Assembly (NCBI GenBank): GCA_028571685.1
Contig: CM053140.1
Coordinates: 20,503,501-20,567,500 of the forward strand
Direction of reading: 5' to 3'
Length of the DNA: 64,000 bases
Source: Heterohyrax brucei
Lineage: Eukaryota > Chordata > Mammalia > Hyracoidea > Procaviidae
A program made the position numbers and the translations under genes. Shown piece by piece: positions 18,271 through 59,935 of this stretch. Within the stretch, counting starts at the first letter, position 1. Each line of letters begins with the position of its first letter. Below the pieces are notes generated by a model. The model searched no databases and had not been told where the DNA came from. It saw only the letters and a list, made by a program, of their open reading frames with translations.

Positions 18271-19525
18271 AATGGGAAACAAAAGTTCTAGGCTCAGGGA
18301 AGGGAGTGGCAGAAGCCCTCAAGGACATTCCTCCTGACAGTCCTTTGGGGAGGATGTTGAGAGGCTGGGGAGACAGTCCCCAAACCCAAGATGAAGACAG
18401 ACAAAAGACAATCAAATATTGCTATTACATTTAGCCAAAGGAACCAATCCGTAGACCATTTGTGTTCTGGCCCCAATTTGGTGCCAACGAGGACTGGGTC
18501 TGCCAGGCTGTAGTCCTCTATGTGAATGATGGGACACCGCCTTCTCAGGAGGAAGTGGCCTATGCTCTCTGTGTTGGTAGAGGGATTAAAATCAGCCCAA
18601 GGTATGTTTCACCTTAAGGTGGGGAAGCGGGTCCCAAATTAAAATCTTGGGATGCCCTGTCGTGTGTACTGCCCCCTCATGCTACACCAGCTGAGGAACA
18701 GAGGGAAGCAGAAACTGAGAGCAGTGAGGAAGCCGAGCCAACTGCTCCTCTTTGCCCTGGTCTGAGAAAGGAATTAGAACAACGCAAGAAAGACCTCCAG
18801 CAGTTTCCCCTACCCACTAAACAACAGATGTTTCCCCTTTGGGAGGTCCCAACAGGACGGGGAGAAATTGGCTATATTAATGCCTCCCTTACCAGTACCG
18901 AGGTCAGAAACTTCAAAAAGGAAACAAGATCTCTCCTGGAAGACTCTCTTGGCCTGGTGGAGCAATTAGATCAATTCTTAGGGCCTAGTTATTGTACCTG
19001 GGTAGACATTTGGTCCATCATGTCCATCCTGTTCACAGAGGAAGAAAGAGGAATGATTAGAAGAGCAACCATGTCAGTCTAGGAGAGGGAACACCCTCCA
19101 GGGGGCAAGATGCCCCCTTCCCGAACAAAAATTCCTGAACACTGACCTGGAATGGGACAACAGTGACCCCAAGGACTGCTACTGAATGCAGGACCTTAGG
19201 GAAATGATAAAGGAGTAAGAGAATCAGATCTCAGAATGTAGCCAAGGCCTTTGCAGTCCAACAAGAAAAGGAGGAGACCCCATTGGCTTTCCTCCAGAGG
19301 CTTAGGGGATCAAATGAGGAACTACTTTGGGTTGGACCTAGAGGACCCAGTAGGACAAGGACTCTTGAAAAGTAGTTTTGTGACCAAGAGTTGGCTTGAT
19401 ATCACAAAAGAATTAAAAAAGATTGAGAGATGGAGTGGTAAACCCATTGATGAACTGTTGAGAGAGGCTCAGAAAGTGTTTATGAGAAGAGAGGAAGAGA
19501 AGCAAAAGAAGAAAGCTAAAATCAT
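18271..19525 (+). pseudogene. ERV1 gag remnant (matrix and capsid), broken
   Basis: The candidate start at 18271 reads MGNK, a myristoylation-type Gag start, but that frame stops within about 22 codons and matrix homology continues in another frame from about 18300 to 18600, with a further stop at about 18429. Capsid homology is clear in the open frame at 18828-19082 (FPLWEVPTGRGEIGYIN, then DQFLGPSYCTWVDIWSIM). The C-terminal capsid domain is at 19310-19520 (SWLDITKELKKIERW, then a basic REEEKQKKK end), in yet another frame relative to its upstream part. Nucleocapsid with its CCHC knuckle is not seen. The sequence passes directly into pol at about 19525-19535. Confidence 0.82.
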
Positions 19526-19529
19526 GGTG

Positions 19530-21900: not shown

Positions 21901-22229
21901 CAAAAAGAATGCTGACCTAAACCCCTCTCCTCAAATTCACCGTTCACCACTTCCGGCCAGGAGATTTTGTGTTGATCGAGACCCGGAAAGAAGATAAACT
22001 TCAGCGGAACTGGGAGGGCCCTTACCAAGTACTTTTGGCCACTGAGACAGCTGTCCAAATCATGGAAAAGGGGCGGACTCAACTATGTACAAGTGAAGGG
22101 TCCACTTGAGAAAAAAATCTCCCCAGGAGAGAACTGGTAACCAGTGGGAGGCACATCCCTTGCCCAGGGAGCCCCTCAGGGTGACTCTGAGGAGGGCCTG
22201 AGAGGATATTCCAAAGCTACACTTCCACA

Positions 22230-23975
22230 GTGAAAAGAGTTTGTTGCTGGGAAAAATGGATTCTTATACTGGGAGTAGAGCGGAGTATCAGCCCAGTAAT
22301 TAATGTGGCCAAAACTACATCTCCCTAGTCCTCAAATTTGATGCTTTTCAGGTCATATGCAGAGACCTAAACTGTCAAAGACAATTAGCAAGCTCAGATA
22401 AACACTTATATCCTGAAGAAAGCTCTGACAATTCCATTAAAAGCAAAGATGATGGGGATGAGCCCACATACCCATGCCCCAGATGGCCCAATGTTTGGTG
22501 GACATCCAGGCCTGGAGGATGGACATATAGTCCATCGTCCTCCCACTCCTGCAAGAGATTAAAAGAAAAGATACACTTTTATAAGGATGAAGCCTCCCCC
22601 AACTGTAAAGAATTAGGTTGCAGCCCTTTACTGCTATCCATTAATACCCCGGCAGCTTTAAATCAGCAGCCACCAGTTGCTACTCGAATATATGGATTGG
22701 GGCCAGACATAACAGGTACAGACCCCCTGGGTAGGCTAACGCTGAAATTAACCACTGCCCCAACACCTGTTTCCCAGACACCCCTACTCCAGTGACCAGC
22801 AGTGATTCCCAGTCACTTTATAATGACCCCAAACGAGTAGAAATAATAAGACTTATGGCAGGCCTTAGAGATAGAGACAGGATATGGAAGTGTGAACGCT
22901 TGGGTGGAATGGGTCAGATATTCAGTGCAAGCTCTCAACAAAAGTGACTTCTGTGCCTCTGCAGCTGGTCGACCACAGGCGCACGTGGTTCCCTTTCCCC
23001 TTGGCTGGGACTTGGATCCGATGGGAATGCACTGCATGTTGGCTGTGTACCAAGACAAAGACACTTGGGAAAATGACAGCTGTAAGGGCTTGTTGTTGCT
23101 CTTTCCTGCACTGCAGAAGGTCAGACCCAAGTGGTCCCCTCATTGTCCATAGGGAGGATGAACCACTCTTCTTGCCTTTCCAGGCAGCGAGCGGAGTTCA
23201 CAGTGCCTATAGCAGAATTGACAATTTGCAACTATATCCAAAACATCACCAGTGAGCCTAGTAGTGGCAACTGTTCAGCCCTCAGAGTACTAGGGTAGAT
23301 GTCTGGTGGTATGGTGGAAAGGGAAACCTCCAAGATGTGCTGCCGTCCAACTGGACTGGGATGTGTGCTTTGGTCCAGCTGGCAATTCTTTCACCCTAGC
23401 GTTCCTTGAAAGGGCCAAGCATGGTGGAAAACCCCAGCCTTGGAGCTGTCTTCCTGGATTGTTTGATCTACATATTTACCTAGACTCCATTGGGGTCCCT
23501 AGAGGGGTACCTAATGAGCTTGAGGCTAGCAATCAAATAGCTGATGAGTTTGAGAGTACACTTTCCTGGTGGTCTACAATAAACAAAAGTGTCGACTGAA
23601 TTAACTGCATTTACTACAACCAACAAAGGTCCATAAACTACACTAGGGATACCTTACAAGGTGCCAGTAGCTGGATGGCCTGCGAAAATAGAATAGCATT
23701 GGACATGATGCTGGCAGAGAAGTGAGGAACATGCGTGATGTTGGGAGACAAGTGTTATACTTTCATTCCTAACAACATAGCTCCTGATGAAGCCATCATG
23801 AAGGCCCTGCAAGGATTAAATATTCTAGCCAATGAATTGGCAGAAAATGCTGGCATCAGCAACCCTATCACTGATTGGCTAGAAGGGTAGTTTGGTAAAT
23901 GGAAAAATATGGCTGCCTCCATCCTGATCTCTCTTATCATAGTAGCAGGAGTTTCGACAGCTGAAGACTAATTGA
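22230..23975 (+). pseudogene. ERV1 env remnant (surface and transmembrane), broken
   Basis: A surface-subunit-like region is spread over frames at about 22240-23580 with stops. The transmembrane part is recognisable at about 23670-23960: an immunosuppressive-domain-like segment (ENRIALDMMLAEK, then a stop), followed by a C-x6-C-type loop whose following residue is no longer cysteine, then a hydrophobic segment (ILISLIIVAGV) at about 23917-23955. The cytoplasmic tail is short or missing. It cannot encode a complete envelope protein. Confidence 0.72.
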
Positions 23976-25384
23976 AATGGCCGTCAATAAACAGACCCCC
24001 ATGACATACCCAGAAACCCACTTACTACTATTAGAAACCTACAAAGATGACACTATACGAGGAATAAAGTCAACAGACACGTGAAAAGTTTGAAAGGCAT
24101 CAATGAAGATGAGACCAACAAGTATAAAAAGAAAGAAAGAACTTGTGAGAAATCTCAAAATGGTCCATCTTCAGAATAAGGGGAACAAAGGCTAGGATAA
24201 GAAGTTACTAGCTAACCTGGACACAAACTATTAGGTGACGTGGCAACCACAGAGCCCACATACCTGGGGAAACGTGTACACAAACAGAATGAATTAGGGG
24301 AGAAGGGGGCGATACTTTTTCAGGAAATACAAATGTAAACTTAAAGGGAAGACTTAGGCAACGTCTAGGAAAGACTGTTTATACCCATATTATTCAGCCA
24401 ATGAGGAACCAGGGGAGGGACTTGCGAGTTAGGGAATAAAAGGCTTGTAAAGAACTGCTTAGGTGTGCCCTGGCCCACTTCCTTTCCTTTGTGGGCTCAT
24501 GTGCCCAATATTGCAAAATTGATTAATAAAGCCTTGCTCTTGCTAACTGGATTCCAACTGTATTTCTTGGGCATTCATCAGGTAGAGAGACCCTGGTAAC
24601 AACCTTTCAGTGACCTCATAAGGGATATGGATATGGCAGGTACACCCCAGACGTTGGGGTAAGGTCTTATTCGGGGGCATATACCAACTCACCAGTTGTC
24701 TAGAGGGACTGAGATGGTGTCCAGGGTACTGACAACATTTCCCACACATGGACCTTAGATTCAGAGGACTCACTGTTCTGGTTGTTGAGGTCACCATGTC
24801 TATCTGCTCATTTCTGTCTTTTATATCTCAAAAGAGATTGACTTAAGACACAACCTAACATTATAGATTGAGTCCTGCCTCATGATTATCGTATTAGGTG
24901 CTGCCAAGTCAGTTCCAACTCACAGCAACCCTGTGTACAACAGCACAAAACACTGCTATGTCTTGCATCCTCCTCTCAGTAATTGTTATGCTTAAGCCCA
25001 TTGTTGTAGCTACTGTGTTGATCCATCTTACTGACAATCTTTCTTTTTTTCACTTAACCCTCTACTTTATACCAAGCATGATGTCCTTCTCCTTCTGCTA
25101 ATAGCATATCCAGAGGATGTGAGACAAACTACCACCTTTGCTTCTAAGGAGCATTCTTGTACTTCTTCCAAGACGGATTTTTTTCCTTTTTTGGCCAATC
25201 CACAGTATGTTCAGTACTCTTCACCATCACAATTGAAAGGCGTCAGTTCTTCTCTGGCCTCTATAATCATTATCCAGCTTTTGCATATGTATGAGGTAAT
25301 TGAAAACATTAAGGCTTGAGTAAGGCTCACCTTAATCTTCGAAGTGATATCCTTGCTTTTAACACTTTAAAGAGGTCTTTTGCA

Positions 25385-25541: not shown

Positions 25542-26599
25542 CTTTTGCAGCAGATTTGTCCAATGCAGTGCATTTTTTTATTTCTTGGCTGCTCCTTCCA
25601 TGAGTGTTGATTGTAGATCCAAATAAAATGAAATTCTTGATGTTGCTGCTGAACTAAAGCAAGTTTGTTCCGCCTATCACTGACAGCCAAAATTCAGAGA
25701 TGGGAAAAAAGTTTGATGCTTTTTTAGCAGACAAGCATGCAGGCCCGGGAGATAGTGAGAATGACTTCTCCAAAAAAACTGTCCCACTTGGGTTACAATT
25801 CCAGCGGCTTTTATAGCCAGATGACAAAGGGATTTGCATCTGGAAAATGTCAAACCTTGTCACAGGATAGAACAGGGAGTCAGTCACAAGTTCATTACCT
25901 CCCTGGAGGCTGATTTACTACCCTGGAGGCAGGTAAAAGAGTGTTAAGTCTACAGATCTGGTTGGGACAGGGAATGGAATATAGCTTCACAGTCTCAAGT
26001 CCCAGCTACTAACATTCCCCACTCTTAATCACCAATTTCATATCTGTGTTTTCAAATGAAAATAGCTGCTTTGATTTGCAGCATTTACTCTAGGAACAAA
26101 TCTTGGATTGTGGGCTAGCTCTCTACAGCATGTGGTGTATTTAATCATGAGATACGGTGCACATGGTATACAGTAACAGACACTCCAGTTAGTGTTTGGT
26201 ATGTGCAGCCAACCTACATTGGGGAGCCATGAGAATAATTTCTCAAACTCTGACCCAAAGAAGCCCTCCTGCTGTTTGGTGTTATTTACAATATCTTTTA
26301 CGTTTTTTTAAAAAATCTGTTCTCTATCAATTGGAAACTATCAGACAAGTTAAAGTAACACATCTCCTTAAGATTTTTATATCCGTGATAATGTGTGAGG
26401 AGTAAGTAGTCTGTAGCTGCCTGATTTCCAGAACTGCATCTCTGACTTGTTCCAGTTCAGCACCTGAAGTGCTTATGACCTGCAAGGCAGCATTTAAAGC
26501 CTGTTAAAGCTATTGCCATGTCAGAGGGACAAGGATACATATTAAGCCAGAGCAAACAGGTGTACATCATGATGGCAAACTTTGGGAAGGTTAATCTTT

Positions 26600-27040
26600 T
26601 ATAGTTCAGGCGTGGTTAGGTCAGATATCTTTAATCTGGTCCAGGAACAGGGTGAGCCTTCCCAAGGAGCACAGTCCCCCTGTAGCATTGGTGGGGACAT
26701 ATGAAAAGGCCCTATTTCCACATAATGAGAACCATCCTTTAGGTAACTTAATGGGTTTATTAGCATAGGACACTGTTGTACGTGTTACCTTTGAGGACGG
26801 GGTTACTAAGATTGTAACAGAAGGAAGGGTATCTTGAAAATTTGACACAGTTTTCACTAGGGGTGCCAATCTCAAGTTGGATCAAGAACATCTCTCTGTC
26901 ATTTTTTTTAGCTGGTCCCCAGTTACAGATATCCCCATAAATGGTGTTCTTTTGAACATATCTGAGCATGGTATAATTTCTAATCAGTTCTAGGGGGGTG
27001 CATACACTAGTTAAACGTGTAAAAATTTCTTTCAACATAA
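26600..27040 (-). pseudogene. Provirus env (surface subunit) remnant
   Basis: The minus-strand frames at 26760-27038 and 26621-26875 look like the C-terminal half of a gammaretroviral surface subunit: several N-glycosylation-type sites and the late motif GWFSLCGNRAFSYVP followed by GGLCSLGRL, where a conserved tryptophan-rich, cysteine-containing segment normally precedes the SU/TM cleavage site. The cleavage site and the transmembrane subunit are not found between here and the 3' LTR. Overlapping frames show a frameshift. Confidence 0.68.
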
Positions 27041-27199
27041 GTACCTCCTGCTAGACAAAAATCAGAGATATTCATTACATTTCACGCACAATAAGCCCAT
27101 ACATTTTGACATCTTCGAAAAGGAATAATGTCTTATGAAAGTCCCAGAGCTAAGTACAGTCCTATGGAGAGAGAGATTCTGGCCTGGTTTCTCTTCCAC

Positions 27200-27770
27200 A
27201 GTGGTGATCCACCACTCATGGTCAAGGTCTGTCATGTCCGTGTCTGCCGAGGGATACAACTTCACCCAAGTGTGATATATCCAGGCCTTCAATCGTCCAG
27301 TTTCACAGCAGTGAGGGTGGTCAGGAGAATTTCCCACAAGCCAGTCCACTCCTCTTCCAGCTGTTCTTCAAGCCCCTCTTTCTAAGTTTTTATCTGTGGG
27401 AAGAGTACAGACCTAGGGCATGGAAAATGGTGAATTCTAAACTTTAAGGTCATTTTCTGCCTGTGGGGAAGGCTGTACTGAGGCAGCCTGGAAGGGTCTC
27501 CCATACACAATTTTATAGGGGTCAGTTTGAGCCTGGTTCTAGGGACTCCCCAGATTTTAAATGAGGCAGTGGGCAAGACCTGATCCCAATGTAAATGAAT
27601 GTCTTGACATAGCTTAGAGATCTGTCTCTTTAAAGTATGGCTCATCTCAACCTTTCCTGATGACTGCGGTCTCCAGGCTGTGTGTGGTCTCCATCTAATG
27701 CCCAGGAATTTGTTCGCTTTCAGATCATTGATTTCTCTTGGCCAGTCAGACTCTTCTCCGGATGCTCAAT
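27200..27770 (-). pseudogene. Provirus integrase remnant
   Basis: Reading the minus strand from about 27730: core-domain sequence ending in SSGKVE (about 27650), which keeps the catalytic glutamate, then LKRQISKLCQDIHLHWDQ (27645 leftward), an LTPIKL...GDPSRLPQ stretch, and a C-terminal LKAWIYHTWVK near 27280. At least two frameshifts separate these parts. The N-terminal zinc domain and the first two catalytic aspartates are absent. Confidence 0.75.
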
Positions 27771-27800
27771 CAGGAGCTGCCAGACGTTCTCATGAAGTAG

Positions 27801-28085
27801 TTACAAGTGGAGGCTCTTCTCCTCAGGGAAGAAGGTGGTCTGGGCATCAACTTTAGACAATAAATCTCTTCCTAATAGCAGGACAGGACAATCTACCATA
27901 TACAGAAACTGGTGAGTCATCTGCTTTTCTTCAATCTGACAGTCAAGAGGCATAAATTGCCTCCACAAATATGGTGGCAGGTTGGGTCTTCCCGATCCTG
28001 TTATTAAAATACCTTGAATGTAATTCTCACCAGTTGGGCAGGATTCATTCCCAAAGCTCTGTCCAACTTTTGTAGCTTTTTCCAC
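27801..28085 (-). pseudogene. Provirus protease/RT junction remnant
   Basis: The 94-codon minus-strand frame contains CPVLLLGRDLLSKVDAQ, the conserved end of a gammaretroviral protease where it meets reverse transcriptase. The active-site triad lies upstream of what is preserved. Just beyond 27801 the sequence passes to integrase at about 27730, so RT and RNase H have been deleted. Confidence 0.72.
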
Positions 28086-28199
28086 ATATCTGGTGCTGGT
28101 GTGGGTAGGTGCTGTAAATTGTTTCCAGGAACTCAGATGGAGCCTTGGTGGACTTTTGCTGTACTTCTTGTATCATGTCCAAACTTCTCTGGCTAGTTA

Positions 28200-28720
28200 T
28201 ACCATTTTGGAGACCTGCTAAAATACTCCTTGAATAACAGTTTAGGAGAGGCTAGCCTTCATTGTTGGGGTCCCAGTTGGGCTCAGTCACTGGGATGGCT
28301 ATTGCTGGGTCAGGAGTGTCAGGAGTGTCATTAGGGCTTTCAGAGAGAAGCCTCTTGGCTTCTTCCTTTGCTTTACCCAGGACCAGGAACTTTTCATCAC
28401 TAGTGAGAAGTACATTTAACAAAGCCTGAATAGCAGCCCAATTGAGGCTACAAGTGGCAAAGATTTGAACTCTTCAACTTCATAAATCGGAAGTGGTAAA
28501 TGGTGTGTGTGCCCAATATCTAATTGGTTGCCCTTGTTGATTTACTCCAGTTGGCAACTGTCAAAGAGGGTATTGCCCTGCCTTATTATCCCGGTTCCCC
28601 TGGCCAGAATGAGTTCCCTGCTGGGTGTGTGATGGCGAGACTGCATCTAAGCTGCCTTCAGAAGGGTAAGGGGGAGCTGTTCCTCAAGAAAGGAATGGGC
28701 AGTTGGTAGTGAAACGTTAA
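28200..28720 (-). pseudogene. Provirus gag fragment
   Basis: The minus strand reads as the C-terminal capsid segment of a class I Gag (LLTSDEKFLVLGKAKEEAKR, followed by an acidic proline-rich stretch). No intact frame remains and there is no zinc knuckle. Confidence 0.55.
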
Positions 28721-29144
28721 CAGTATCCATAATAATCTGATTATCTAACATCTCCTGTTTTCAAAAACATTTTCATTAGAAATGGAAGAAATTACAGGGG
28801 AAAGGAGATGTTTCATAGTGCACCAGTTTTACAGAATGTATCACATTTTACACAGTGACCCTGTCCTCCAGACTGTAGGCCATGTCTCTCTTCTCCAGAT
28901 CCTGAGTGGAAGCCCCACCCCAGACATGTCCTGTAGTCCTGCCTTCTAGGCCAACTGGGGGAGCACTTCCTCTTCCCTGGGCTTCGGGCACACAGTTTTT
29001 CAAGCCCACAGGAGTGGCAACTCTACAATTAAAAACATTAGGGGGCATGGCTCCGTTTTTCACACCCTTGAGGTACACCGGTGAAGCTGAGGCAGTTTAG
29101 CTTCCAAGCTCAGCTTTTGTTTCCCAACCAGCTCAAATTAACAA

Positions 29145-29308
29145 TTTAAAACCGAATCAAACTCACTGTTGTGGAGCCAATTTTAATTCATAGAGGCCCC
29201 ATAGGGCAGAATAGAATTGCCACACTGAACCACTGGCATATTTAAACTGCAGATTTTCCCATCAGTAAAGCATAGCACTCATCACTGTGTAACCAGGGTT
29301 TTGTCAGG
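29145..29308 (-). repeat. AfroSINE, antisense, 7-bp target duplication
   Basis: Flanked by ttaacaa at 29138-29144 and 29309-29315, inside the leader/gag region of the minus-strand provirus, so it is younger than that provirus. Confidence 0.82.
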
Positions 29309-29315
29309 TTAACAA

Positions 29316-31987
29316 CTGAGAGGGAACAATGAATCATAACTTAATTTTTGTTAGATAGTATTAAGGGGGAAAACCATATACATTTTAACCCAATAAGAAC
29401 TGGGTAACCTTTGATTCCAATCTGTGCCAAAAACCTTTTAGCTCTTTTGTCTCAAAAAAGGCTGCCTTTGGCTTTTGCTTTCTCTCTGTTTCCACACCTT
29501 GTGGCTTGGTTTTTGTGACTCAGGAATCTTAATGAGAGATCGAATCTTTTCCTTTAAGGGATAAATTAACAGTTTCGCTCAGAAGTCAGAAAAATGTGTT
29601 ATTAAGCAATGAAAAAAAAATCCAATTTTTGTACTGTTAATGTTCTTAGAAATTTCGTAAATCAAACCATTAGACAAACAAAACCTTTGACCATACTAAA
29701 TAAATATTTTTGAACAACAGAAAATAAATTCACTCATTAAGACATATAATACATATATTACTTGTTTCCTGAAAAAGCAAAAAGTGTATTAAATTGTAAT
29801 AGATATCCGATGACTCACTCTAACTTCATTAAGTTACCCAAAAGCTTCTAGAAGTTATTTTAAGCCTGTAATTTTGAAATAAAGTTCATCTAAACATTTC
29901 AAGCTTTTTATTGTATTTTTCCAATCCAATTTAACTCACAAATTTTCCATGAACTGGCTTTGGCAATGACAGAGTCAATCTCATTAGGGTTAAAAAACCC
30001 CTCCAGGCTATTTCAAATGTCTCAGAGTTGCCCTGCAACAGGGAGAGTTTATTTGCATTCTTGGAGCCACCCAATTTCTATTCATCAAAATAAAACAGTA
30101 ATTCTTATCTGCTTTTTGTCTTAAAGCTCTGCACCCAATTGTAAATGTTTTTTTTTTTCCAAAAGCTTCGCTGGGGTTATGACTTGAGGCTGCTCCTGCC
30201 CTGCCCTCTTCTTCCTGGAGGGCAAAAGATCATTAATTTCCATTTTACTGTTCTGGAATTGTTACTTTCTCTTTAAGACAAAACTATCCCTTTAACTAAA
30301 GGGGCCTTTAATTAAGGGCTGTAAAGTTAGTTTTTCAGCTTAATGACATATATCTGGATCTACTTGAGGTTCAACTTTTTTATGTATTTTAGTTCAAGTG
30401 TAGAACTCTGCTCCACAGCTGATAAAGAGGATCTAAGTACAAAAAACCTTTTCTGACCTGCCAAATGAGTTTTTCTCAAAGAATTAAAACAATATCTTAG
30501 AATTAGGCCAGGTGAAACCTATATTGACAATAACAAGAAATACAGCATTTAACAGGCAAAGACTGTTTTACAAATAAGACAGACGTTAAATAAGAATAAT
30601 ACCATGTGGCTTGAGGCCAAACTTATGAAGTCTTACACAGACATTAAACACTCAGTCCACAAGAATCAGACACTTTTCACAGAAACTTACTGATTTGGGG
30701 TCCCCACAAACAGCTTGTATAACTACAACAAAGACATTTCCACAACACGATGGCAAATACAAAACCACACTATAAATGTATTTACCTTATCAAACATACA
30801 AAGGAGGCCTCATTTCTACATATACACAGCTTCACTTACACCACATAAGCACAGCTTCACTTTAAAGTGAGCTTAGCGAAAATTTTCCTGATTTTTGACA
30901 ACAGAGCTCTAATTGCAGAAATGGATCCATTCAATCACTAACTTTCTCCAGAGACTAACTGGTATATTGGCCAGGCCATGTTACAGAGAGGTGGGTACCC
31001 ATACTGAGACCAGACAGAATCCACCCCAATGGCCTTTTCCTAGGAACAGAGACCTTCTCATATTACAGAGTATACGGAGAAAGCTTTTTTAACCAATACA
31101 GAAGTTCTAGCCCTGATGGGAACCTGAGTTCTGTGTGCACAACCAGAAGACATGGGTACCCATACAGACAGAATCTGCCCCATCAGGCTTTTCTTAGGAC
31201 TAGAGGTATTAATACAGAGAAAGCTTTCTCAGTTGAGACAGACATTCCTATCTTACCAGACAGATGGTACCAAGACAGGCAGAAGTCTGAACCTGGTAAG
31301 AACCTGAGTTCTCTGCATCCAACCAGAATAAAGCTCTTGAACCTTTTTAGATTAGTGAATCAATGCCCAGTGTGAGTAGGCAGCTTTCAAAGGCCCCCAA
31401 GAAAAAGATTCTTGGCAACACTGCTCAGGGCATTCAGAAGCTGCACGTCTGGACCCATCTGTCCAAGTAGACAAGGGGGCCTCCTCCAAATTCCCTCTGT
31501 CCTGGGTTGAGCCAGAGAGGAGAGGAGAAAAAGAGAGGAGGTAGAAAAATCTGCTTTCTATCCTAGCAGGATAGTGGAAGTCCAGGGAAATGGGAGGTGT
31601 TATGTTTGGACCACTATGTTCCTCACACTGCACAGAGTTTGTCTTGCAGGGACGGACACTTTCCTCATCCACTCCACATACCCCCTCATCCTGTCATTGG
31701 GGTCTTCCATCAGCAGATGCCATACTGGCTCTTAAATATCTGATCTGTGCCCACAAATATTTTCTTTGGCCTTTGAATGGAACAGATAGGTACCCTCACC
31801 CATCCAGGCCAGAGTTACTGGGGTGGTATGAAGAGCCAAGCCTTCATATCTCATCAGGGAGTGCCCAGATCAGGGTTCTTCCATTGCTATCCACCTGTTC
31901 ACTGAGGTTTTAGAGATGTAGCAGAAAAGTGGAGGAGAGAAAAATTGGTTCTTCCCTGGGAAAGAACTTACTGTAGGGGTCACTGAA
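29316..31987 (-). other. Long AT-rich leader of the minus-strand provirus
   Basis: About 2.7 kb lies between the primer site and the first recognisable gag sequence. No domain is recognisable on either strand. Two imperfect direct repeats are visible: 'gtacccatac...agacagaatc' at about 30997 and 31155, and 'acctgagttctgtgtgcacaaccagaa' at about 31122 with its relative at about 31301. It may be a pre-gag region as in some class I ERVs, or contain an unrecognised insertion. Confidence 0.5.
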
Positions 31988-32005
31988 GCCCCTTTGTGGT
32001 TACCA
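31988..32005 (-). other. Primer-binding-site-like sequence
   Basis: Four bases inside the 5' LTR the minus strand reads TGGTAACCACAAAGGGGC. The position and leading TGG fit a primer site. The tRNA is not clear; the first half is closest to a Trp-type site. Confidence 0.5.
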
Positions 32006-32905
32006 GAAATGCTGCTAAACTAAAGCAAGTTTGTACTGCCTATCACTGACAATCAAAATTCAGAAATGGGGAAAAAGTTCAATGCTTTTTTAGCAGACAA
32101 GCATGCAGGTCCAGGAGACAGTTAAGAATAACTTCTCAAAAAATAATAATAATAACTGTCCCACCTGGGTTATAATTCCAGTGGCTTTTATAGCCGGATT
32201 ACAAAGGGGTTTGCATCTGGAAAATGTCAAATCTTGTCACAGGATAGAACAGGGAGTCACAAGGTTCATTACCTCCTTGAAGGTTGATTAACTACCTGGA
32301 GACAAGTAGAGGAACGTAAGTCTACAGAGCTGGTTGGGACAGGGAACGGAACTTGGTTTAGCAGTTTCAAGTCCCAGCTACTAACAATGTCAGTCATTTC
32401 TCAGCTTTTCTCATGATGTTGCCTTTTGGTCCAGTTGTGAGGATTTTTGTTTTCTTTGTGTTGAGGTATAATAAATACTGAAGGCTGTGATATTTGATTT
32501 TCATCAATAAGTGTTCAAGTCCTCTTAACTTTTAGGAGGTAAGGTTGTCTAATCAGCATATCTCAGGTTATTCATGATTCTTCCTCTAATCATAATACCC
32601 TGTTCTTCATATAGTCTAGCTTCTCAGATTATTTGCTCAGCATATAGATTTATAAGTGTGGTGGAAGGTTATGACCTTGAAGCACATCTTTCCTGACTTT
32701 AAACCACATGGTATCTCCTTGTTCTGTTTGAACAAATGCCTCTTGAGCTATGTACGAGTTCATCATGAGCACAGTTAAGTATTCTGGGATTCCTGTTCTT
32801 TGCAATGGTATCCAGAATTTGTTATGATTCACACAGCGAAGGCCTTTACACAGTCAATGAAACCCAAGTAAACATCTTTCAGATATTATCTGAAGTTGAC
32901 TAGGA

Positions 32906-41332: not shown

Positions 41333-41619
41333 ACATATAAATCTAGCTGTAAAGTTGTGTGGTCAGGGAATTTTCAAAATACTACATTCTCATAAATGTG
41401 AGTCACATATTGAATGTTTGAAACATTTTATTTGGATATAATTATCAGAAAGCCACATGTTTTAGAAAACCAGTGACAGTAAGTGTAGGATTTCTGCTAG
41501 CTGATTTATCCTATGAAACATGAGACAAGTTAGGGCAAAAACCGTGCAGGTTCACTATACTTGATAATTGTGAAATGGAAACAGGTTTATTTACAACAGT
41601 ATGTTGTCTATTTTAACAG

Positions 41620-42985
41620 ACATCATACAGTAGAAAACCTCTGTGAAAGTACTGAAGGCATTCATTGTGGGATAACCTTCAGCTGGATTCCAAATCTTCC
41701 TGTACTAAAAAGAAATTCTCCAGAAGTGAATCCTTTTGAATGCTGTGAGTGTGGAAAAGCCTTCATGGATCACTCGTCACATAACCATCATACTAGATCT
41801 CACACTGGATCCAGTAACTGTCAGTATGAGGAATGTGGAGAAACCTGCAGTTGTCCCTCTCACCTAACCACTCTTATGAACACTGTTACTGAAAAGAAAC
41901 CTCAAAAATATATGGTATGGGAGAAAGACTTTATATGTTTCTCAGCATTTAAGAATCCTGTGACAACACTCATTGGTGAGAAATACTACGTGTGTAACCA
42001 GTGTGGGGAGCATTTCTGTAGTTTCCCATCCTTTTGGACACATGTGAAAGGTCATAAACATGAATGCCAAGAATGTTGTGAAACCTATAGTTGGCCTTCA
42101 TCCCTCATTTTACATAAAAAAATTTGTAACAGAGATGTGCCTTATGAATGTAAGCAGTGTGGGAAAGCCTTTAGTCGTTCTTCCACCCTCACTAAACATA
42201 CAAGAATTCACAGTGGAGAGAAACCCTATGAATGCAAGGAATGTGGGAAAGCCTTTAGTTTTTCCTCAGCCTTAACTCAACATATAAGAACTCACAGTGG
42301 AGAGAAGCCTTATGAATGTAAGGAATGTGGAAAAGCATTTAGTTGTTCCTCAGCCCTCGCTCAACACATAAGAACTCACAGTGGAGAGAAACCCTATGAA
42401 TGTAAGGAATGTGGGAAAGCCTTTAGTTATTCCTCACGCCTCGTTGCACATATAAGAGTTCATAGTGGAGAGAAGCCTTATGAATGTAAGGAATGTGGAA
42501 AAGCATTTAGTCGGTCTTCACGCCTCACTGCACACCTAAGGCTTCACAGTGGAGAGAGGACTTATGAATGTAAAGACTGTGGGAAAGCTTTTAGTTGTTC
42601 CTCAGCTCTCACTCAACATACAAGAACTCACAGTGGGGAGAGGCCGTATGAATGTAATGAATGTGAAAAAGCTTTTAGTTCTTCCTCAGCCCTCATTAAA
42701 CATATAAGAACTCACAGTGGAGAGAGGCCCTATAAATGTCAGGAATGTGGGAAGGCCTTTCGTTGTACCTCATACCTCACTCAACATATAAGAATTCACA
42801 GTGGAGAGAGGCCTTATCAATGCAAGGAATGTAGGAAAGCCTTTAATTCTTCCTCATACCTCACTCGACATACAAGAATTCACAGTGGAGAGAGGCGTTA
42901 CGGATGCAAGGAATGTGGGAAAGCCTTTATTTGGTCCTCACAGCTCACTCGACATACAAGAATGCATAGTGGAGAGAGGCCTTAG
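41620..42985 (+). CDS. C2H2 zinc-finger exon of the KRAB gene
   Basis: The exon starts after acceptor 'ctattttaacag' (41619) with [10 protein letters not shown], a family signature. Finger homology then runs: one finger near 41735 with intact C2H2 ligands, two degenerate fingers, one intact C2H2 (about 41990), one C2HC finger (about 42063-42128), then ten canonical fingers at exact 84-nt spacing starting 42143, 42227, 42311, 42395, 42479, 42563, 42647, 42731, 42815 and 42899. All ten keep C-x2-C-x12-H-x3-H. Every linker reads HSGEKP, HSGERP, HSGERT or HSGERR rather than HTGEKP. Predicted DNA-contact residues (-1,2,3,6) run RSTK, FSAQ, CSAQ, YSRA, RSRA, CSAQ, SSAK, CSYQ, SSYR, WSQR. The stop at 42983-42985 replaces the tyrosine that would begin the next finger. 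Probable role: sequence-specific repressor. The orthologue is not identified; it resembles the family of human 19p13.2. Confidence 0.92.
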
Positions 42986-43240
42986 GAATGTAAGGAATGT
43001 GGGAAAGCCTTTGTTTGGCCCTCATAGCTCACTTGATCATAGACTTCATAGTGGAGAGAGGCTTTTTGAATGTAAGCAGTGTGGAAAAGCCTTTATTCAA
43101 GCAATATCCCTCACTCGACATACCTGAATTCACAGTGAATGGAGACCTTATGAATGTAAGGAATGTAGGAAAGCCTTTGTTCCTCACACCTCACTCAACC
43201 TGTGAGAACTCACAGTGGAGAGACTACTCTGTCAAAAGTG
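42986..43240 (+). pseudogene. Decayed fingers beyond the stop codon
   Basis: Three more finger modules follow at the same spacing, but with stops inside or between them (for example TAG in the first at about 43025 and TGA at about 43123). They sit in the 3' untranslated part of the gene and show that the array was once longer. Confidence 0.85.
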
Positions 43241-44806: not shown

Positions 44807-45918
44807 TTCTACACAATGATAAGGAATAACGATTCCAGGAAACATCTTCTAACCTGGTTTCAACTGGAAGACATTATGTTGAGTGAAAGTAGTCAGCGAC
44901 AAAAGGACAAATACTGTATGAGACCTCTACGATAAGATCTCAAAAACAGACTTGTGTATAGAAGAAAAGACTCTTTGACAGCTGCAAGGGAGGGGAGGGA
45001 GGGAGCGTGAGGAGGGGAGGGTTTAGTTTAGACAGTTACTAGAAATCTAGTTGGGAGAAAGCGGTGACAGCACACATTAGGAACAAGAACATTAAGTGGA
45101 CTTCAGCATAACTTGAGTACTCCTTCCATCTTAACTCAATACTGCAAGGATAGAGTAGCTGGGGCGGGGGGCAGGGGACCATGCTCTTAGGCAAATTCCA
45201 GGCCAATTGGCACAACTAGCGTTTTGCTAAGAGAGCTCTCTGCACCCCACATTGGTGAGTGGCGTCTGGGGTCTTAAAAGCTGCCAAGCTGCCATCCGAG
45301 GACACAGCAAATGGTCCAACTCAACAGGAACGGATGCTCACCGAGGACCAAAATGACATGTGGTAAAGACACCCGAGAAGACGGAGAGAACCACAAGAGT
45401 GGGCACCTACATCGACTTGGGACCGGAAGAACCGGATGGTGCCTGGCCACCACCAGTGATAGCCACGATGGAGCTCACAGAGAGGAGTCTCACTGGCAAC
45501 ACAAGAATAAAGAGGTGCATCATGAGATCTCCACTAAAAGACCTCAACTGATGGTCCAGCAGCTTTGGGGTTCCCCTGAGAGCATGGCCCCCGGCCCTGA
45601 TGCTGCCCTTTCCCATAAATTATAACAAAGGTCCACTCTTTGGACAGGAATGGATTGGACTTGGCAAGGCAGAGTGACCATATATTGGAAGCACTTTATG
45701 GTTCTATACATCTATAGGATATCATCTTGCTGACCTCTGGCTGGAGGAAGGGGAGTGGAAGGAGACTGTTGGGAGGATGAGACATGTATGGAGCAGAGAG
45801 GAATAGTGTGCTGTGTCACCAGACAGGGAGAGCAGTGGAAGCTGCATATAGGGGGGCATGTAAATTTATATGTGAATGTACATTTTCACTCAGTTATGTT
45901 AAATAAAAATTTTTTTAA
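44807..45918 (+). mobile_element. L1 3' end inserted within another L1
   Basis: Flanked by aaaagggggtgcatc at 44792-44806 and aaaagggggatgcatc at 45919-45934. It contains the end of ORF2-derived sequence ('atgttgagtgaaagtagtcagc') and a complete 3' UTR ending 'gttaaataaaaa'. Confidence 0.85.
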
Positions 45919-46020
45919 AAAAGGGGGATGCATCCTGAGATCTCCACTAAAAGACCTCAATTGATGGTCCTGCGGTTTCGGGGTTCCCCTGAGAGCATGG
46001 CCCCCGGCCCTGATGCTGCC

Positions 46021-46618
46021 TGTGGTGGTCAGGATTATGTCAACTTGTCTACTACATATTTGGCTGCTGTATTAAGTGGCAGGGCGGGGTTTGTGGTGGC
46101 TCCCTGCCCCTCGGCTCTCATCTCGCGACCTTTTACTACGGCTCCTGGTCTCTGGTTCCAGCGTCTGGTTCCGGGACTTAACTAGCAGCTGTTGGACTCA
46201 TCAGTCCTTACAGTCGGCACTTGAGAGTCCTGCTCCCTGATCTGCCGATCCTGGGTTCACCAGCCTCTGCCCGCTCCTGCTCCCTGACCTGCCGACCCTG
46301 GGTTTGCCAGCCTCTGCTTGCTCCTGCTGCCTGACCTGCTGATCCTGGTTTTGCCAGCCTCTATCACTTGGTCTTGCCACCAACTTGGGATCCACTGACC
46401 TACACAATCGGTGATCTAGAACTCTGGTCTCTGACTTGCTGACTTTGGGTTCCTCAGCTTCCGTGGCCACGTGAGGCTTGTGCCAGAGCTTGGGACATTC
46501 AGCTTCTGTGATTACGTGAGCTGTTTCCTATATTTGTATCTATCTATCTATTATAAATCTTTCCTTGTACCTACACATGTTACTGGTTTTGCTTCCCTAG
46601 AAAACCCAGCCTAAGACA
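46021..46618 (+). repeat. ERVL (MLT2-like) solo LTR
   Basis: 598 bp, TGTGGTGGTCAGG to CCTAAGACA, with an exact 5-bp duplication ctgcc (46016-46020, 46619-46623). Internal near-repeats of 'tgctccctgacctgc' occur three times. The same family as 60792-61308. Confidence 0.88.
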
Positions 46619-47559
46619 CTGCCCTTACCCATAAATTATAACAAAGGTCCACTCTTTGGACAGGAATGAATTGGATTTGGCAATGCAGAGTGACCATATA
46701 TTGGATGCACTTTATGGTTCTATACATCTATAGGATATCATCCTGCTGACCTCTGGCTGGAGGAAGGAGAGTGGGTGGAGAGGAGCGGAAATGAGGCTGT
46801 TGGAAGGATGAGACATGTATGGAGCATAGAGGAATAGTGTGCTGTCACCGGAAAGGGAGAGCAGTGGAAGCTGCATATAGGTGGGCATGTAAATTTATAC
46901 AGGAATGTACATTTTCACTCAGTCATGTTAAATAAAAAAGAAAAAAAAATACATACCTTAATATGAAAATATTACTAAAAATGCTAGCCATCTTCTGAGC
47001 CTTCAGTGAGTTATAATCCTTTTGCTGTCAGAGGGTGTCTCACCTTGATGTTGATGGCTGCTGACTGATCAGGGTGGTGCTTGCTGAAGGCTGGGGTGGC
47101 TGTGGCAGTTTCTGTAGATAACAGTGAAGTTTGCTGCATTGACTGACTCTTCATGAAAGATTTCTCTGTAGCATATGATGCTATTTGACAGCATAATACT
47201 CACAGTAGGAGTTTCAAATTTGTAGCCAATCCTATCAAACTGTGTGGTAAGCGGGACGTGATGGCCCAAGATGGCGCCCAGGGCCAGAACAGCACCCCAA
47301 CCACACCCTTGTTTACCAGACCTAGGGCTTTCATGGCGCATGCCTGTGGGCAGTGGCTTCCCGCTAGCTTATCGTGGGCTGCCATCTTGGGAGAGCGTGG
47401 CACATGAGGATTGGAGGAATCTAGGGTATAAATTGAGCAAGCACCAGGAAAGAAGGAGAAGAATAATAAGAGAGAAGAATAAAGTCAGCAACCAGCAAGG
47501 CGGCTCGCATCCGTGTGTCCTGTCTTCTTTCCGCCGGCAGACAGTTAGGCAGCGACAAG

Positions 47560-47577
47560 TGGTGGCCCGTACGGGGA
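47560..47577 (+). other. tRNA-Ile primer-binding site
   Basis: TGGTGGCCCGTACGGGGA lies two bases after the first LTR and is, as far as I can recall the tRNA, a full 18-base complement of the tRNA-Ile(AAU) 3' end including CCA. Confidence 0.85.
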
Positions 47578-47606
47578 CCCACTCTTCAATCAAGGAGCCC
47601 GAAGAG

Positions 47607-47798
47607 GTGAAACGCTAGCGTAAGTAGGACCCCAGAAGTAGGGGCGAAGGGAAAGTGAAACACTAGCATAAGTAGAACCCCGGAAGTAGGGGCGAAGGGA
47701 AAGTGAAACGCTAGCGTAAGTAGGACCCCGGAAGTAGGGGCGAAGGGAAAGTGAAACGCTAGCGTAAGTAGGACCCCGGGAGTAGGGGCGAAGGGAAA
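47607..47798 (+). repeat. 48-bp tandem repeat, four copies, in the proviral leader
   Basis: Units start at 47607, 47655, 47703 and 47751 and are 94-98% alike by eye. Each begins gtgaaacgctagcg. Three carry GCGTAAGTAG, which contains the splice-donor consensus GTAAGT; the second has GCATAAGTAG, losing the GT through an apparent CpG transition. Confidence 0.95.
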
Positions 47799-47845
47799 GT
47801 TATTTTATTGCAGCGATTAGGAGGCCGTGTGAAACTCAGAGGCGA

Positions 47846-48560
47846 TGGGGAACCGGCCTTCCTCTCGGCACTTACTTGATGCCTTAAAGTGCGTATTGAT
47901 GCCGCTGCTGATCACCTCACTAGAGCCACTCTCATCCTTAATGCCACTGAACAAGCTGAAGCTTTTCACAAACGTTTTCATGTGAATGCTCACACCCTCT
48001 CCTCGCGCTTCCATATATCGTGGGAAGCCGCTCGGGCCATAGTAAAACAATGCGCCTCCTGTGCACGCTACCAACCCCAGCCACACATAGGTGTGACCTA
48101 TTGCAGGACCAAGTGGATGTGCTATTCCAGCTGGCACAGCTGGGTTGTGAGCAAAGGCTTCCTGGATTGTGTGTCACCTCCGTACAGTTCAGCAACGTCT
48201 CTAGAGCTGTTAACCTCTCTCGGTCTCTTTCTTTAGAACTACAGGGCAACTGGTCTGCTAATTTAGAGCAGACTCTGGAACAGCTAAGACTCTCCATCGT
48301 TGCGATCAACTCCATGCGAGTCGATACTCACACTCCCAGTGGACTGCTGAAATTTATGAGCTCAGCGTTTTCCACCATCAAGGAATGGACGGGACTTGGG
48401 GTACTCAGTGTAGCTTTCCTCTGTGCCATTTTTGCCATATGTCTTATTGGCCGGCGCGCCTCCCGACAGCGATGACAGGAACAGGCCCTGATTATACAGG
48501 CCATTGCAGCCGTGCAAGATGAACAGCCCTCGGCAAGCGTCTGGCTCAGCATGTTAGAAG
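47846..48560 (+). pseudogene. Proviral interior: Gag start, integrase zinc domain, Env transmembrane end
   Basis: At 47846 MGNRPSSRHLLDALK is a betaretrovirus-type myristoylated Gag start of about 15 codons. It runs straight into integrase N-terminal sequence in a different frame (47920-48090): an HHCC zinc site is visible as FHKRFH followed by CASC. From about 48105 another frame gives an Env transmembrane C-terminal half: a helical segment with NVSRAVNLSRSLSLELQGNW, then a membrane span (LSVAFLCAIFAICLIG) ending about 48450, then a cytoplasmic tail after a TGA at 48474. The deletions appear to have joined distant parts; nothing complete is encoded. Confidence 0.8.
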
Positions 48561-48705
48561 GGTAGCCAAAGACGGGCAACCTCTTCTGGGGGTGCTACCA
48601 ACCTAAGACAGGGGCCTCACCAAGCTGTGAGGTATCCCCATGACGGGTCAGGAGCATCCTAGCCGAAGAGGACCCAAGACAGGCACCTTCTCGGTTTATG
48701 TAAAC

Positions 48706-48719
48706 AAAAAAGGAGGAGA
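48706..48719 (+). other. Polypurine tract
   Basis: AAAAAAGGAGGAGA immediately precedes the second LTR, the normal position of the plus-strand primer. Confidence 0.85.
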
Positions 48720-49904
48720 TGTGGTAAGCGGGACGTGATGGCCCAAGATGGCGCCCAGGGCCAGAACAGCACCCCAACCACACCCTTGTTTACCAGACCT
48801 AGGGCTTTCATGGCGCATGCCTGTGGGCAGTGGCTTCCCGCTAGCCTATCGTGGGCCTCCATCTTGGGAGAGCGTGGCACATGAGGATTGGAGGAATCTA
48901 GGGTATAAATTGAGCAAGCACCAGGAAAGGAGAATAATAATAATAAAGTAAGCAACCTGCAAGGCGGCTCGCATCCGTGTGTCCTGTCTTCTTTCCGCGG
49001 GCGGACAGTTAGGCAGCGACAAAACTGTGTTGCTGCCTTATCAGCTAAGTTTATATAATATTCTAAATTAAATCCTTTGTTGTCATTTCAGCAATGTTCA
49101 CAGAATTTTCACCAGGAGTAAATTCCATCTCAAGGAACCACTGTCTTTCCTCATCCCTAAGATAGAACTCATCATCTGTTAAAATTTTATCATGAGATTG
49201 CAGCAATTTGGACATATTTTCAGGTGCCACTGCTGGTTCACTTGCTATTTCTGCCACATGTTCAGTTACTTCCTCCACTGAAGTCACAAACCCTTCCAGA
49301 AGAGTTGGAATCAACTTCCAAACTCTAGTTAATGTTGATATTCTTACCTTCTTCCACAAATCATAAATTTTCTCAGTGGCATCTCGAATGGTGAATCTTT
49401 TCTGGAACATTTTACTTTACTTTGTCCAGATCCATCAGAGGAATTGCTATCTATGGCAGCTACAGCCTTACAAAATGTATTTCTTAAATAGTAGGACTCG
49501 GAAGTCAAAATTACTCCTTAATTCAGGGACTGCAGAATGGGTGTTGTGTTAACAATCATGAAAACAACATTAATCTACTTGAAGATCTTCATTAGAGCTC
49601 TTGGGTGACCAGTTGCTTTAAGTCAAGGCCAATGAGCAATAATATTTTGAAAGGAATCTGTGAGCAGTAGGTCTAACAGTGGGCTTAAAATATTCAGTAA
49701 ACTATGTTGTAAACAGATGTGCTGTCATCCAGGATTTGTTGTTCCATTTATGAAACACAGGCAGAGTAGATTCAGCATAATTTTTAAGGGCCCTGGGATT
49801 TTCAGAATGAGAAGTGAGCACTGGCCTCAAAGTCACTAGCTGCGTTAGCTCCTACCAACAGAATCAGTCTGTCGTCTGCAGTTTTGAAGCTGGGTAATGT
49901 TGTG

Positions 49905-50400: not shown

Positions 50401-50918
50401 CTACATTGACTCGGGACCAGAAGAACCGGATGGTGCCCGACCACCACCAGTGATAGCTGCGATGGAGCTCACTAAGTTGAGTCTCACTGGCAACACAAGA
50501 ATAAAAAGGAGTGCATCCTGAGATCCCCACTAAAAGACCTCAATTGATGGTCCAGTGGTTTCAGGGTTCCCCTGGGAGCATGGCCCCGGCCCTGATGCTG
50601 CCCTTGACCATAAATCATAACGAAGGTCCACGCTTTGGACAGGAATGGATTGGACTTGGATGCACTTTATGGTTCTATACTTCTATAGGATGTCATCCTG
50701 TTGACCTCTGGCTGGAGGAAGGAGAGTGGATGGAGAGGAGGGAAAAAAGAGACTGTTGGGAGAACGAGACATGTATGGAGCAGAGAGGAATAGTGTGCTG
50801 TCACCACACAGGGAGAGCAGTGGAAGCTGCATATAGGTGGGTATGTAAAACAGGAACATACATTTTCACTCAGTTATATTAAATAAAAAATTTTAAAAAA
50901 TAATAATAATAATAGCCA
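50401..50918 (+). mobile_element. L1 3' UTR insertion
   Basis: 5'-truncated copy of the same L1 3' UTR as 45419-45918, ending with an A-rich tail and (aat)n at 50900-50918. Confidence 0.87.
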
Positions 50919-58510: not shown

Positions 58511-59935
58511 GAAAGAAAGAGTCCTGGTGATGCAGTGGTTAAAAAGCTTTCCTGCTACTGTCCACCACGGCAAAAAGATGGAGTCAACCTAGATGCCCAT
58601 CAACAGATGAATGGATAAATAAACTATGATACGTATACTCAATGGAACACTATGCAATGCAATGATGGAGAACAATGATGATTTCAGGAAGCATCTCATC
58701 ACCTGGTTTGAACTGGAAGACATTATGCTGAGTGAAATCAGTCAGCAGCAAACGGACAAATATTGTATGAGACTCCTGCTATAAGGACTTAAAAGTAGAC
58801 TTATGCATGAAAGAAACGTCTCTTTGGCGGCTACAAGGTAAGAGAGGGAGAGGGTTAGGCATAGATTAGATAGTCGATGGAAATTTGATTAGGTGAAAGC
58901 AGTGACAGCACACAGTAGAGAGTAGATCAGCTTAACTGGGCTTCATCATAAACTGAAAGGTTTTCTAAACTCAACCTAATATTTCAAAGGATTGACAAGC
59001 AGGGCCAGGAGTCTGGGGACCAGCTGGCCAGAGAGTTGAGGCCAGCTGGCATAACTAATCTATTGCTGAGAGTCTTCTGCACCCCATATTGGTGAGTGGT
59101 GTCTGGGGTCTTAAAAGCTAGCAAGCTGCCATCTGAGGTACACCAAATAGTCTCAACTCATCTGGAACAGATGATCACTGAGAACAACGAAGATATGAGG
59201 CAAAGAGAGCCCATGAGACAGAAGGACCCATATGAACGGGAGACTATCAACATCAGTGCAGAATTAGGTGATGCCCGGCCACCACCAAAGACAGCTGTAA
59301 CGGAGGACAAGATGTAGAGTCCCTGAGACAACACAAGAAAAAGAGATGTGCCGTCTAAGAACTCTACCAAAAGACCTGAACTGATGGTCTGCAGCCTGGA
59401 TGCTCTCCTGGGAACATGGCCCCTAGACCTGCTGCTGTCCCTGACTGGAAACCAGTAATAAGTCAACTGTGCAGACAAGAATGGACTGGACTCAGGGACA
59501 CAGTGTGACCACATAGTATGTGTACTTTATGGTTCCAGACATTTACAGGAGGCTTTCCTACTGGTCTCTTTCTAGATGGGAGAGAAGAAGATGGAGAAGC
59601 GGGGAAAGATGCTTCTTAAGAGGCTACTAGATACACAGAGTGAAAAGGAAGAGTGTGCTGTCACCAGGTGGGGAGAACGGAGGGAGCTGCAGATAGGTGG
59701 GCATGCGAAAACGATTTGGATTTATATACTTTCACTTAATGACAACTTAAAAAAAACAGCTTTGCTCTAACAGAAAAGTCAGAGGTTGGAATCCGTAAGC
59801 CTCTGCAGGAGAAAGATGTAACAGTCTACTGCTGTAAAGATTTTATGGACTTGGAATCTCTATGGGGCGGTTCCACTATACTGTTATCAGTAGGTATTGA
59901 CTCCAGGGCAGTGGGTTTTGGGGAGCAAAAGGTAG
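58511..59935 (+). repeat. AfroSINE split by an L1
   Basis: The head ('gaaagagtcctggtgatgcagtggtt') is at 58511-58556. The rest resumes at about 59753 ('gctttgctctaacagaaaagtcagaggttgg...ggaatctctatggggcggttcc...ggcagtgggttttgg'). The A-rich boundary duplication 'aaaaagctttcctgct' (58541-58556) recurs imperfectly at about 59750-59770. Confidence 0.78.
58557..59752 (+). mobile_element. L1 3' end inserted in an AfroSINE
   Basis: 'aaaaagatggagtcaacctagatgcc', 'tacgtatactcaatggaacactatgc', 'tgaactggaagacattatgctgagtgaaatcagtcagc', then the L1 3' UTR. It ends 'cttaatgacaacttaaaaaaa'. A different subfamily from the 45-kb copies, judging by many substitutions. Confidence 0.88.

What the first reader, a model, noticed from the sequence alone, without database searches (positions are those of the whole stretch)
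47243..49021. Recent, minimal betaretroviral provirus with tRNA-Ile primer site
The 6-bp target duplication, polypurine tract, Gag start, integrase zinc domain and Env tail all point to a class II (betaretrovirus-like) element, a group that mostly uses Lys or Phe primer tRNAs. The primer site here is a full-length tRNA-Ile match, best known from a class I family. The two LTRs are nearly identical while the interior is cut to under 1.2 kb. That pattern suggests a non-autonomous element mobilised in trans, possibly a family rather than one deleted copy.
Basis: partly seen in the sequence, partly recalled or inferred. Interest (0 to 1): 0.75.

Follow-up and report, generated by a model that had tools for sequence, protein, structure and literature searches.

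The report
Dwarf parasite provirus with isoleucine primer
This is one copy of a family of tiny, gene-less relatives of betaretroviruses that spread through the host genome, most likely by borrowing the machinery of bigger relatives, and that carry an isoleucine rather than the usual lysine tRNA primer site.

Summary
47243-49021 is a two-LTR provirus with a 6-bp target duplication, an 18/18 tRNA-Ile primer site and a 1,162-bp interior: leader, gag start, integrase zinc domain, Env TM tail. The LTRs differ by 8 substitutions and 2 indels: young, not "nearly identical".
The host genome (3.49 Gb, unnamed; probably afrotherian, recalled) answers the open question. All 40 scored interior matches (window included) span both internal junctions. 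Of 36 other LTR stretches fetched, 14 hold two-LTR copies with the same order of parts, all 14 with the Ile site at 0-1 mismatch. In an LTR tree the 15 short copies form one clade, support 0.75, without long copies. Of 24 integrase-bearing long relatives sampled, 17 had a readable primer site: 14 Ile, 1 Lys-1,2-like, 1 Lys-3-like, 1 Trp/Arg-like.
So this is a mobile non-autonomous class II ERV family of the ETn/MusD and cattle D-type kind, born by two internal deletions inside an Ile-primed betaretroviral lineage. Mobilisation in trans is inferred. The kind is known; primer and compactness make it a new variant.

The parts
47237..47242 (.). target-site duplication, left copy (AAACTG)
   Evidence: with the insert left out a minus-strand frame of the older repeat runs across the site
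47243..47557 (+). 5' LTR, 315 bp, TG...CA; TATAAA at 47427, AATAAA at 47478
47560..47577 (+). primer binding site, 18/18 to tRNA-Ile
   Evidence: 14 of 14 other two-LTR copies fetched have it, 11 exact and 3 with one mismatch
47607..47800 (+). leader array of four 48-bp units; GTAAGT (splice-donor-like) in 3 of 4 units
   Evidence: the same region is 48-415 bp long in 14 other copies
47845..47982 (+). gag start codon and a 46-codon frame; about 18 codons are gag, the rest is read out of frame after the junction
   Evidence: ATG kept in 14 of 14 other copies; no library hit
47898..47900 (+). junction 1 (gag to the sequence just before integrase); most of gag, pro and RT are missing
   Evidence: against two long copies; same in 13 of 14 other copies, place lost in the 14th
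47900..48096 (+). integrase N-terminal zinc domain fragment, betaretroviral type
   Evidence: 96-97% to two long copies
48089..48096 (+). junction 2 (integrase to Env TM); catalytic core, SU and front of TM are missing
   Evidence: 38 genome sites with this junction type at 0-2 mismatches, reversed control 0
48094..48472 (+). Env TM C-terminal part with membrane anchor; C-x7-C, no CX6CC
   Evidence: 97% to one long copy
48473..48702 (+). rest of Env tail and 3' untranslated part; TGA at 48473 in this copy and L043, CGA or CAA in the other 13 of 15
48703..48719 (+). polypurine tract
48720..49021 (+). 3' LTR, 302 bp; TATAAA 48904, AATAAA 48942
49022..49027 (.). target-site duplication, right copy (AAACTG)

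Best explanation
A member of a non-autonomous class II (betaretrovirus-like) ERV family. An Ile-primed betaretroviral ancestor lost two internal stretches, gag to the end of RNase H and integrase core to the front of TM, at joins with short microhomology (1 nt, and up to 4 nt), probably by template switching during reverse transcription. What stayed is what a retroviral RNA needs in cis: promoter and poly(A) signals in the LTR, an Ile primer site, the leader with its repeat array, the polypurine tract. Its RNA was packaged, copied from tRNA-Ile and integrated with 6-bp duplications by proteins of long relatives, many times, leaving short proviruses and solo LTRs. Shown: family, shared junctions, shared primer site, separate insertions, long relatives with the same primer site and integrase. 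Inferred: trans-supply of proteins, template switching, and any role of the array in packaging or splicing.
For: Same order of parts in 14 other two-LTR copies, gag-start, integrase, Env and tail parts 91-98% and LTRs 89-96% identical to the window; junctions shared. Interior query: 40 of 40 scored hits, window included, cover 916-919 of 919 bases; 38 sites with the window-type junction 2, control 0. Exact 6-bp duplications, each a different sequence, at 11 of 14 other two-LTR copies and 20 of 22 solo LTRs. Ile site in 14 of 14 other short copies and 14 of 17 readable long relatives. Short copies one LTR clade next to long copies C14 and C27. Variants in the Env and integrase remnants fall evenly over codon positions, so they look non-coding.
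Against: No transcript, particle or mobilisation data. Clade support is only 0.75 and LTR pairs are sisters in only 7 of 15 copies. Junction 2 has variants (7 of 11 window type, 4 of 11 one base shorter; a third form at one site), so more than one event is not fully excluded. Of the two closest long copies one lacks the front of Env and the other shows no Env in the 3.9 kb read: an intact helper of this branch was not found. Seven of 24 long relatives sampled had no LTR or primer site at the expected place.
Confidence: 0.9

Rival explanations
1. A single provirus that lost its genes after integration, ordinary decay.
For: Nothing in the window alone excluded it.
Against: The same junctions sit in other copies with their own duplications.
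Confidence: 0.02
2. The short copies spread by segmental duplication of one locus rather than by retrotransposition.
For: Integrase-pattern hits on C28 recur in pairs at 57.7-58.7 kb spacing, so duplication of such loci occurs in this genome.
Against: 14 two-LTR copies and 22 solo LTRs lie in different flanks, most with their own 6-bp duplication, on many contigs.
Confidence: 0.02
3. The Ile primer site is a chance mispriming fixed in this copy, while the lineage is Lys-primed.
For: Inheritance of a tRNA-copied PBS and primer switching are described (PMC7472051 passages); relatives with Lys-1,2-, Lys-3- and Trp/Arg-like sites exist.
Against: Ile site in 14 of 14 other short copies and in 14 of 17 readable long relatives with LTRs down to 73% identical.
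Confidence: 0.03
4. Recombinant: a class I (HERV-I-like) leader and primer site joined to a class II body.
For: Ile primers are best known from class I HERV-I (recalled).
Against: LTR, leader, gag start and integrase travel together in two long copies; 6-bp duplications; no class I match turned up for the pieces tested.
Confidence: 0.04

Closest known systems
ETn / MusD (mouse)
   Same: Betaretroviral pair; ETn is non-autonomous and shares LTR and primer tRNA with coding MusD; ETn copies are far more numerous (PMC7472051, passages).
   Different: Lys-3 or Lys-1,2 primer; the pair shows a central segment swapped for an old piece of retroelement (PMC10924933, passage). Here I saw deletions without a foreign insert, and an Ile primer site.
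Cattle ERVK[2-1-LTR] C-type / D-type
   Same: Class II; gene-less D-type copies are 85% of elements, share the PBS with C-type and are proposed as parasite-of-parasite (PMC10924933, abstract and passages).
   Different: D-type is about 6.8 kb and Lys-primed; the short copies here are 1.6-2.0 kb and Ile-primed.
HERV-I / RTVL-I (class I, Ile-primed)
   Same: tRNA-Ile primer site (recalled).
   Different: Class I (recalled); here integrase zinc domain, Env tail type and 6-bp duplication are class II.
Betaretroviral ERVs of bats and pangolin
   Same: Class II genes; bat LTRs mostly 300-500 bp.
   Different: The bat elements with an assigned PBS use Lys tRNAs, one being uncertain (PMC3621094, passages); pangolin beta elements have PBS-Lys (PMC12584738, passages).

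Membership tests
class II (betaretrovirus-like) ERV | integrase of betaretroviral type | tested here: met
   PF02022 7e-14; best solved relatives 3jca, 7usf, 5cz2, MMTV by recall; fragment of about 70 residues only, HIV-2 and others follow at weaker scores
class II (betaretrovirus-like) ERV | class II-type Env TM (GP41 domain, no CX6CC) | tested here: met
   relatives P0001 and most listed carry PF00517; P0001's best solved relative is 9nnd, labelled Endogenous retrovirus group K member 7; the window frame itself reaches no Pfam or solved-structure match
class II (betaretrovirus-like) ERV | 6-bp target duplication | tested here: met
   window; exact at 11 of 14 other two-LTR copies and 20 of 22 solo LTRs
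class II (betaretrovirus-like) ERV | dUTPase in pro, betaretroviral RT phylogeny | not tested
   region missing here; pro and RT of long copies were not fetched
Lys-primed betaretroviruses / 'ERVK' by primer | tRNA-Lys primer site | tested here: not met
   18/18 tRNA-Ile
HERV-I-like class I ERV | class I pol and gamma-type Env, 4-bp duplication (criteria recalled) | tested here: not met
non-autonomous ERV with coding partner (ETn/MusD kind) | many copies sharing one internal structure, no coding capacity | tested here: met
non-autonomous ERV with coding partner (ETn/MusD kind) | coding relatives with matching LTR and primer in the same genome | tested here: inconclusive
   long copies on C14 and C27 match (LTR 89-90%, Ile site, integrase 96-97%), but their gag, pro and RT were not examined for coding state
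non-autonomous ERV with coding partner (ETn/MusD kind) | mobilisation in trans shown by assay | not testable with these tools
   needs a retrotransposition assay

The most novel reading that the evidence does not exclude
In this host lineage class II ERVs changed primer tRNA more than once (Ile, Lys-1,2-like, Lys-3-like and Trp/Arg-like sites among alignable relatives). The Ile branch left the usual lysine primer, perhaps escaping silencing by lysine tRNA fragments, and then produced a dwarf parasite that kept an exact Ile site in 12 of 15 copies and may by now outnumber its helpers.
Probability: 0.35. Interest if true: 0.65.

Novelty: new variant of a known kind. Interest (0 to 1): 0.48.

Why it matters
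Primer choice is commonly treated as a near-fixed mark of betaretroviruses. A group of alignable relatives with Ile, Lys-1,2-, Lys-3- and Trp/Arg-like sites gives a natural series for asking what permits primer switching and whether tRNA-fragment silencing drives it. The short family is also a compact natural test of which sequences a betaretroviral RNA needs in cis, and a further case of a parasite-of-parasite ERV pair outside mouse and cattle.

Tried and rejected
IMG/VR scans with the integrase and Env pieces, with P0001, with the PBS and with a 24-base LTR piece: 0 confirmed loci in 5 of 5 scans; prokaryote genome contigs with the LTR piece: 0. Protein search with the integrase frame: 1 candidate, none significant. 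RNA folding of the leader and of one 48-bp unit: no more stable than shuffles (z 0.61 and 0.69). Env frame against solved structures: only chance-level hits; gag start: nothing. First try for long relatives, by Env protein P0002: 150 scored hits of 1,008 candidates; of these I fetched 14 Env-to-LTR pieces, none the direct relative (tail 67-84% over the parts that align); the uninterrupted-integrase pattern replaced it. Counting long copies by a gag piece and the gag/IN junction by pattern never got an answer. Paper searches for an Ile-primed class II ERV: searches gave 0 papers; one search gave 81 with at least 3 of 6 terms, 20 listed, none with 'tRNA-Ile' in its counts. The library is open-licence papers only, so this is no proof of absence; Repbase and Dfam were not searched. 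One search found no paper printing the SINE strings I recalled.

Full report
What is in the window. 47243-49021 is a provirus with LTRs of 315 and 302 bp, TG...CA ends and a 6-bp duplication AAACTG. It sits inside an older repeat; with the insert left out a minus-strand frame of that repeat runs across the site (I take the repeat for Tigger-like from memory). The primer site 47560-47577 is 18/18 the tRNA-Ile PBS printed in PMC1084362 table 2 (one passage seen). Behind it lie a 48-bp x 4 array, a gag start codon, an integrase zinc domain (Pfam PF02022, E=7e-14; best solved relatives 3jca, 7usf and 5cz2, MMTV by recall) and the C-terminal part of Env TM. The Env frame has no Pfam match of its own and only chance-level hits among solved structures. 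It was recognised through one protein (P0001, 62% over 69 residues). A profile of both found 152 proteins, 120 listed; names given by sources include rabbit ERVK-25 Env-like and entries from pangolin, hamster, blind mole rat, lemur and jerboa. All 120 match the window frame, 119 starting at residues 41-47 and one at 54, and 16 reach its last residue. That puts the Env join near 48083-48098; comparison with a long copy narrows it to 48089-48096.

Class. The integrase fragment, the Env TM type (C-x7-C, no CX6CC; P0001's best solved relative is 9nnd, labelled Endogenous retrovirus group K member 7) and 6-bp duplications agree on class II. The gag start alone has no library support.

The family. 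The host assembly (3.488 Gb, 62 contigs) gave 1,262 first-look LTR candidates, of which 40 were scored, all at 92% or more, the window's own 5' LTR among them. For the interior it gave 687 candidates and 40 scored hits, the window among them; 39 cover 919 of 919 bases and one 916, at 96-97% apart from the window itself. Candidates beyond 40 were not scored, so these are not copy numbers. The other 39 LTR hits fall into 36 stretches, all fetched: 14 hold two-LTR copies and 22 solo LTRs. The 14 have interiors of 1,005-1,386 bp in the same order of parts; gag-start, integrase, Env and tail parts are 91-98% and LTRs 89-96% identical to the window. Exact 6-bp duplications flank 11 of 14 and 20 of 22; of the rest L022, L021 and L041 have one mismatch, L037 shares 5 bp, and L039 is a compound with three LTRs whose outer flanks share GAAACA.

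Junctions. The gag/integrase junction is the same in 13 of 14 other copies; L031 has lost the place. The integrase/Env junction is kept in 11 of 14 (lost in L014, L025, L030): 7 of window type, 4 one base shorter. The window-type junction 2 occurs at 38 sites, 30 exact, reversed control 0. Against the long copies, junction 1 shows 1 nt of microhomology. One site (C19:61617345) has a form of junction 2 that fits 4 shared bases, from which the two other forms differ by small deletions (that order is my inference).

Long relatives. A pattern for uninterrupted integrase found 43 sites at 0-2 mismatches, control 0; at least one, C19:61617345, is a short copy. I looked at pieces of 4 and then 20 of these. 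Two, on C27 and C14, have LTRs 89-90% like the window, Ile sites (18/18 and 17/18), leader 92-96%, 48-bp-like units, gag start 91% and integrase 96-97%; C27 has the Env part at 97% but its match to P0001 begins only at residue 62, and C14 shows no Env in the 3.9 kb read. C19 (68.55 Mb) has LTRs 84-86% and integrase 88% like the window and a Lys-1,2-like site with one extra base. C3 gave no LTR in its 5' piece. Of 20 more, 12 have the Ile site (5 exact, 5 with one mismatch, 1 with two, 1 with three), 1 a Lys-3-like site (2 mismatches), 1 a site 17/18 like the Trp PBS quoted in PMC4724089 (passage, which also says Trp and Arg sites are hard to tell apart), and in 6 no LTR or PBS was found at the expected place. 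In all, 17 of 24 were readable: 14 Ile, 3 other. LTR identity of the 12 Ile copies to the window is 73-91%. In a tree of 5' LTRs (FastTree, about 300 bp; 15 short copies, 16 long) the 15 short copies form a clade, support 0.75, no long copy inside, next to C14 and C27; the Lys-1,2-like copy falls among Ile copies (other supports were not printed). So the primer site has changed more than once or changed back.

Age and coding state. K2P between LTRs is 0.027 for the window and 0.0065-0.0611, median 0.0205, for the 14 others. At an assumed 2.2e-9 per site per year (recalled mammalian average) this is about 1.5-14 My, median near 5; a slower host rate would make it older. LTR pairs are sisters in only 7 of 15 copies, the window's not among them, so single dates are rough; short sequences or exchange between copies may be the reason. 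Minor variants across 15 copies fall evenly on codon positions in the Env (34, 28, 28) and integrase (19, 16, 21) remnants: no sign that they are kept as protein.

Mechanism. Shown: one architecture, many insertions, one primer type, relatives with integrase in the same genome. Inferred: transcription from the LTR, packaging and copying by proteins of long relatives. The array region is 48 to 415 bp long in the 14 other copies, with 1-7 GTAAGT motifs in leader plus array; folding gives no unusual structure. Its role, packaging or splicing, is open.

Against what is known. The pairs ETn/MusD, IAP I-delta-1/IAP and cattle D/C types are the same kind (PMC10924933 abstract and passages; PMC7472051 passages). 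PBS change within a family is also known: ETn from Lys-3 to Lys-1,2, HERV-H with H, F and K sites (PMC4724089 passages), a foamy virus with another tRNA than its kin (PMC4261875 passages). In the bat survey the betaretroviral ERVs with an assigned PBS were Lys-primed (PMC3621094 passages). HIV-1 given an Ile site did not keep it in culture (PMC1084362 passage), so an Ile-primed betaretroviral family is of some interest. No Ile-primed class II family turned up in the searches named under Tried and rejected; Repbase and Dfam were not searched, so this family may already have a name there.

Host. Not named by any search. tRNA-derived SINEs in the window look like AfroSINEs (recalled; one search did not confirm the strings), so an elephant-like afrotherian is my guess.

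Noticed in passing
L039 (G000:C8, minus strand): Three-LTR compound: a short copy followed by a second, different interior with an exact Ile site, repeats of about 27 bp in its leader and no match to the gag-start, integrase or Env parts, ending in an older LTR; outer flanks share GAAACA. Perhaps a second dwarf family.
   Followed up: partly
G000: 150 scored Env loci (1,008 candidates) in several groups; 25 of the 150 rows have the same score, a 308-residue frame and one TAA, as if one group had burst recently.
   Followed up: partly
L083 / L053 (G000:C9): A related class II element with an 83.5% like 3' tail but its own U3 carries a Trp/Arg-like primer site.
   Followed up: partly
G000:C28: Integrase-pattern hits recur in four pairs 57.7-58.7 kb apart along C28, which looks like repeated segmental duplication.
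   Followed up: no
17474-24751 and 25644-32386: Two older ERVs with LTR-like pairs 79% and 85% alike and decayed pieces of RT (19567-19935) or protease (27804-28172, minus, below Pfam's cut-off) inside.
   Followed up: partly
41534-43223: C2H2 zinc-finger array with a 483-residue open frame; further repeat units follow beyond its stop.
   Followed up: no
15037-15623 (minus): Fragments of 18S ribosomal RNA (Rfam RF01960), probably a pseudogene.
   Followed up: no
4697-5691, 44934-46938, 50401-50912, 58788-59705: A repeated element of about 1 kb in several copies, not identified.
   Followed up: no
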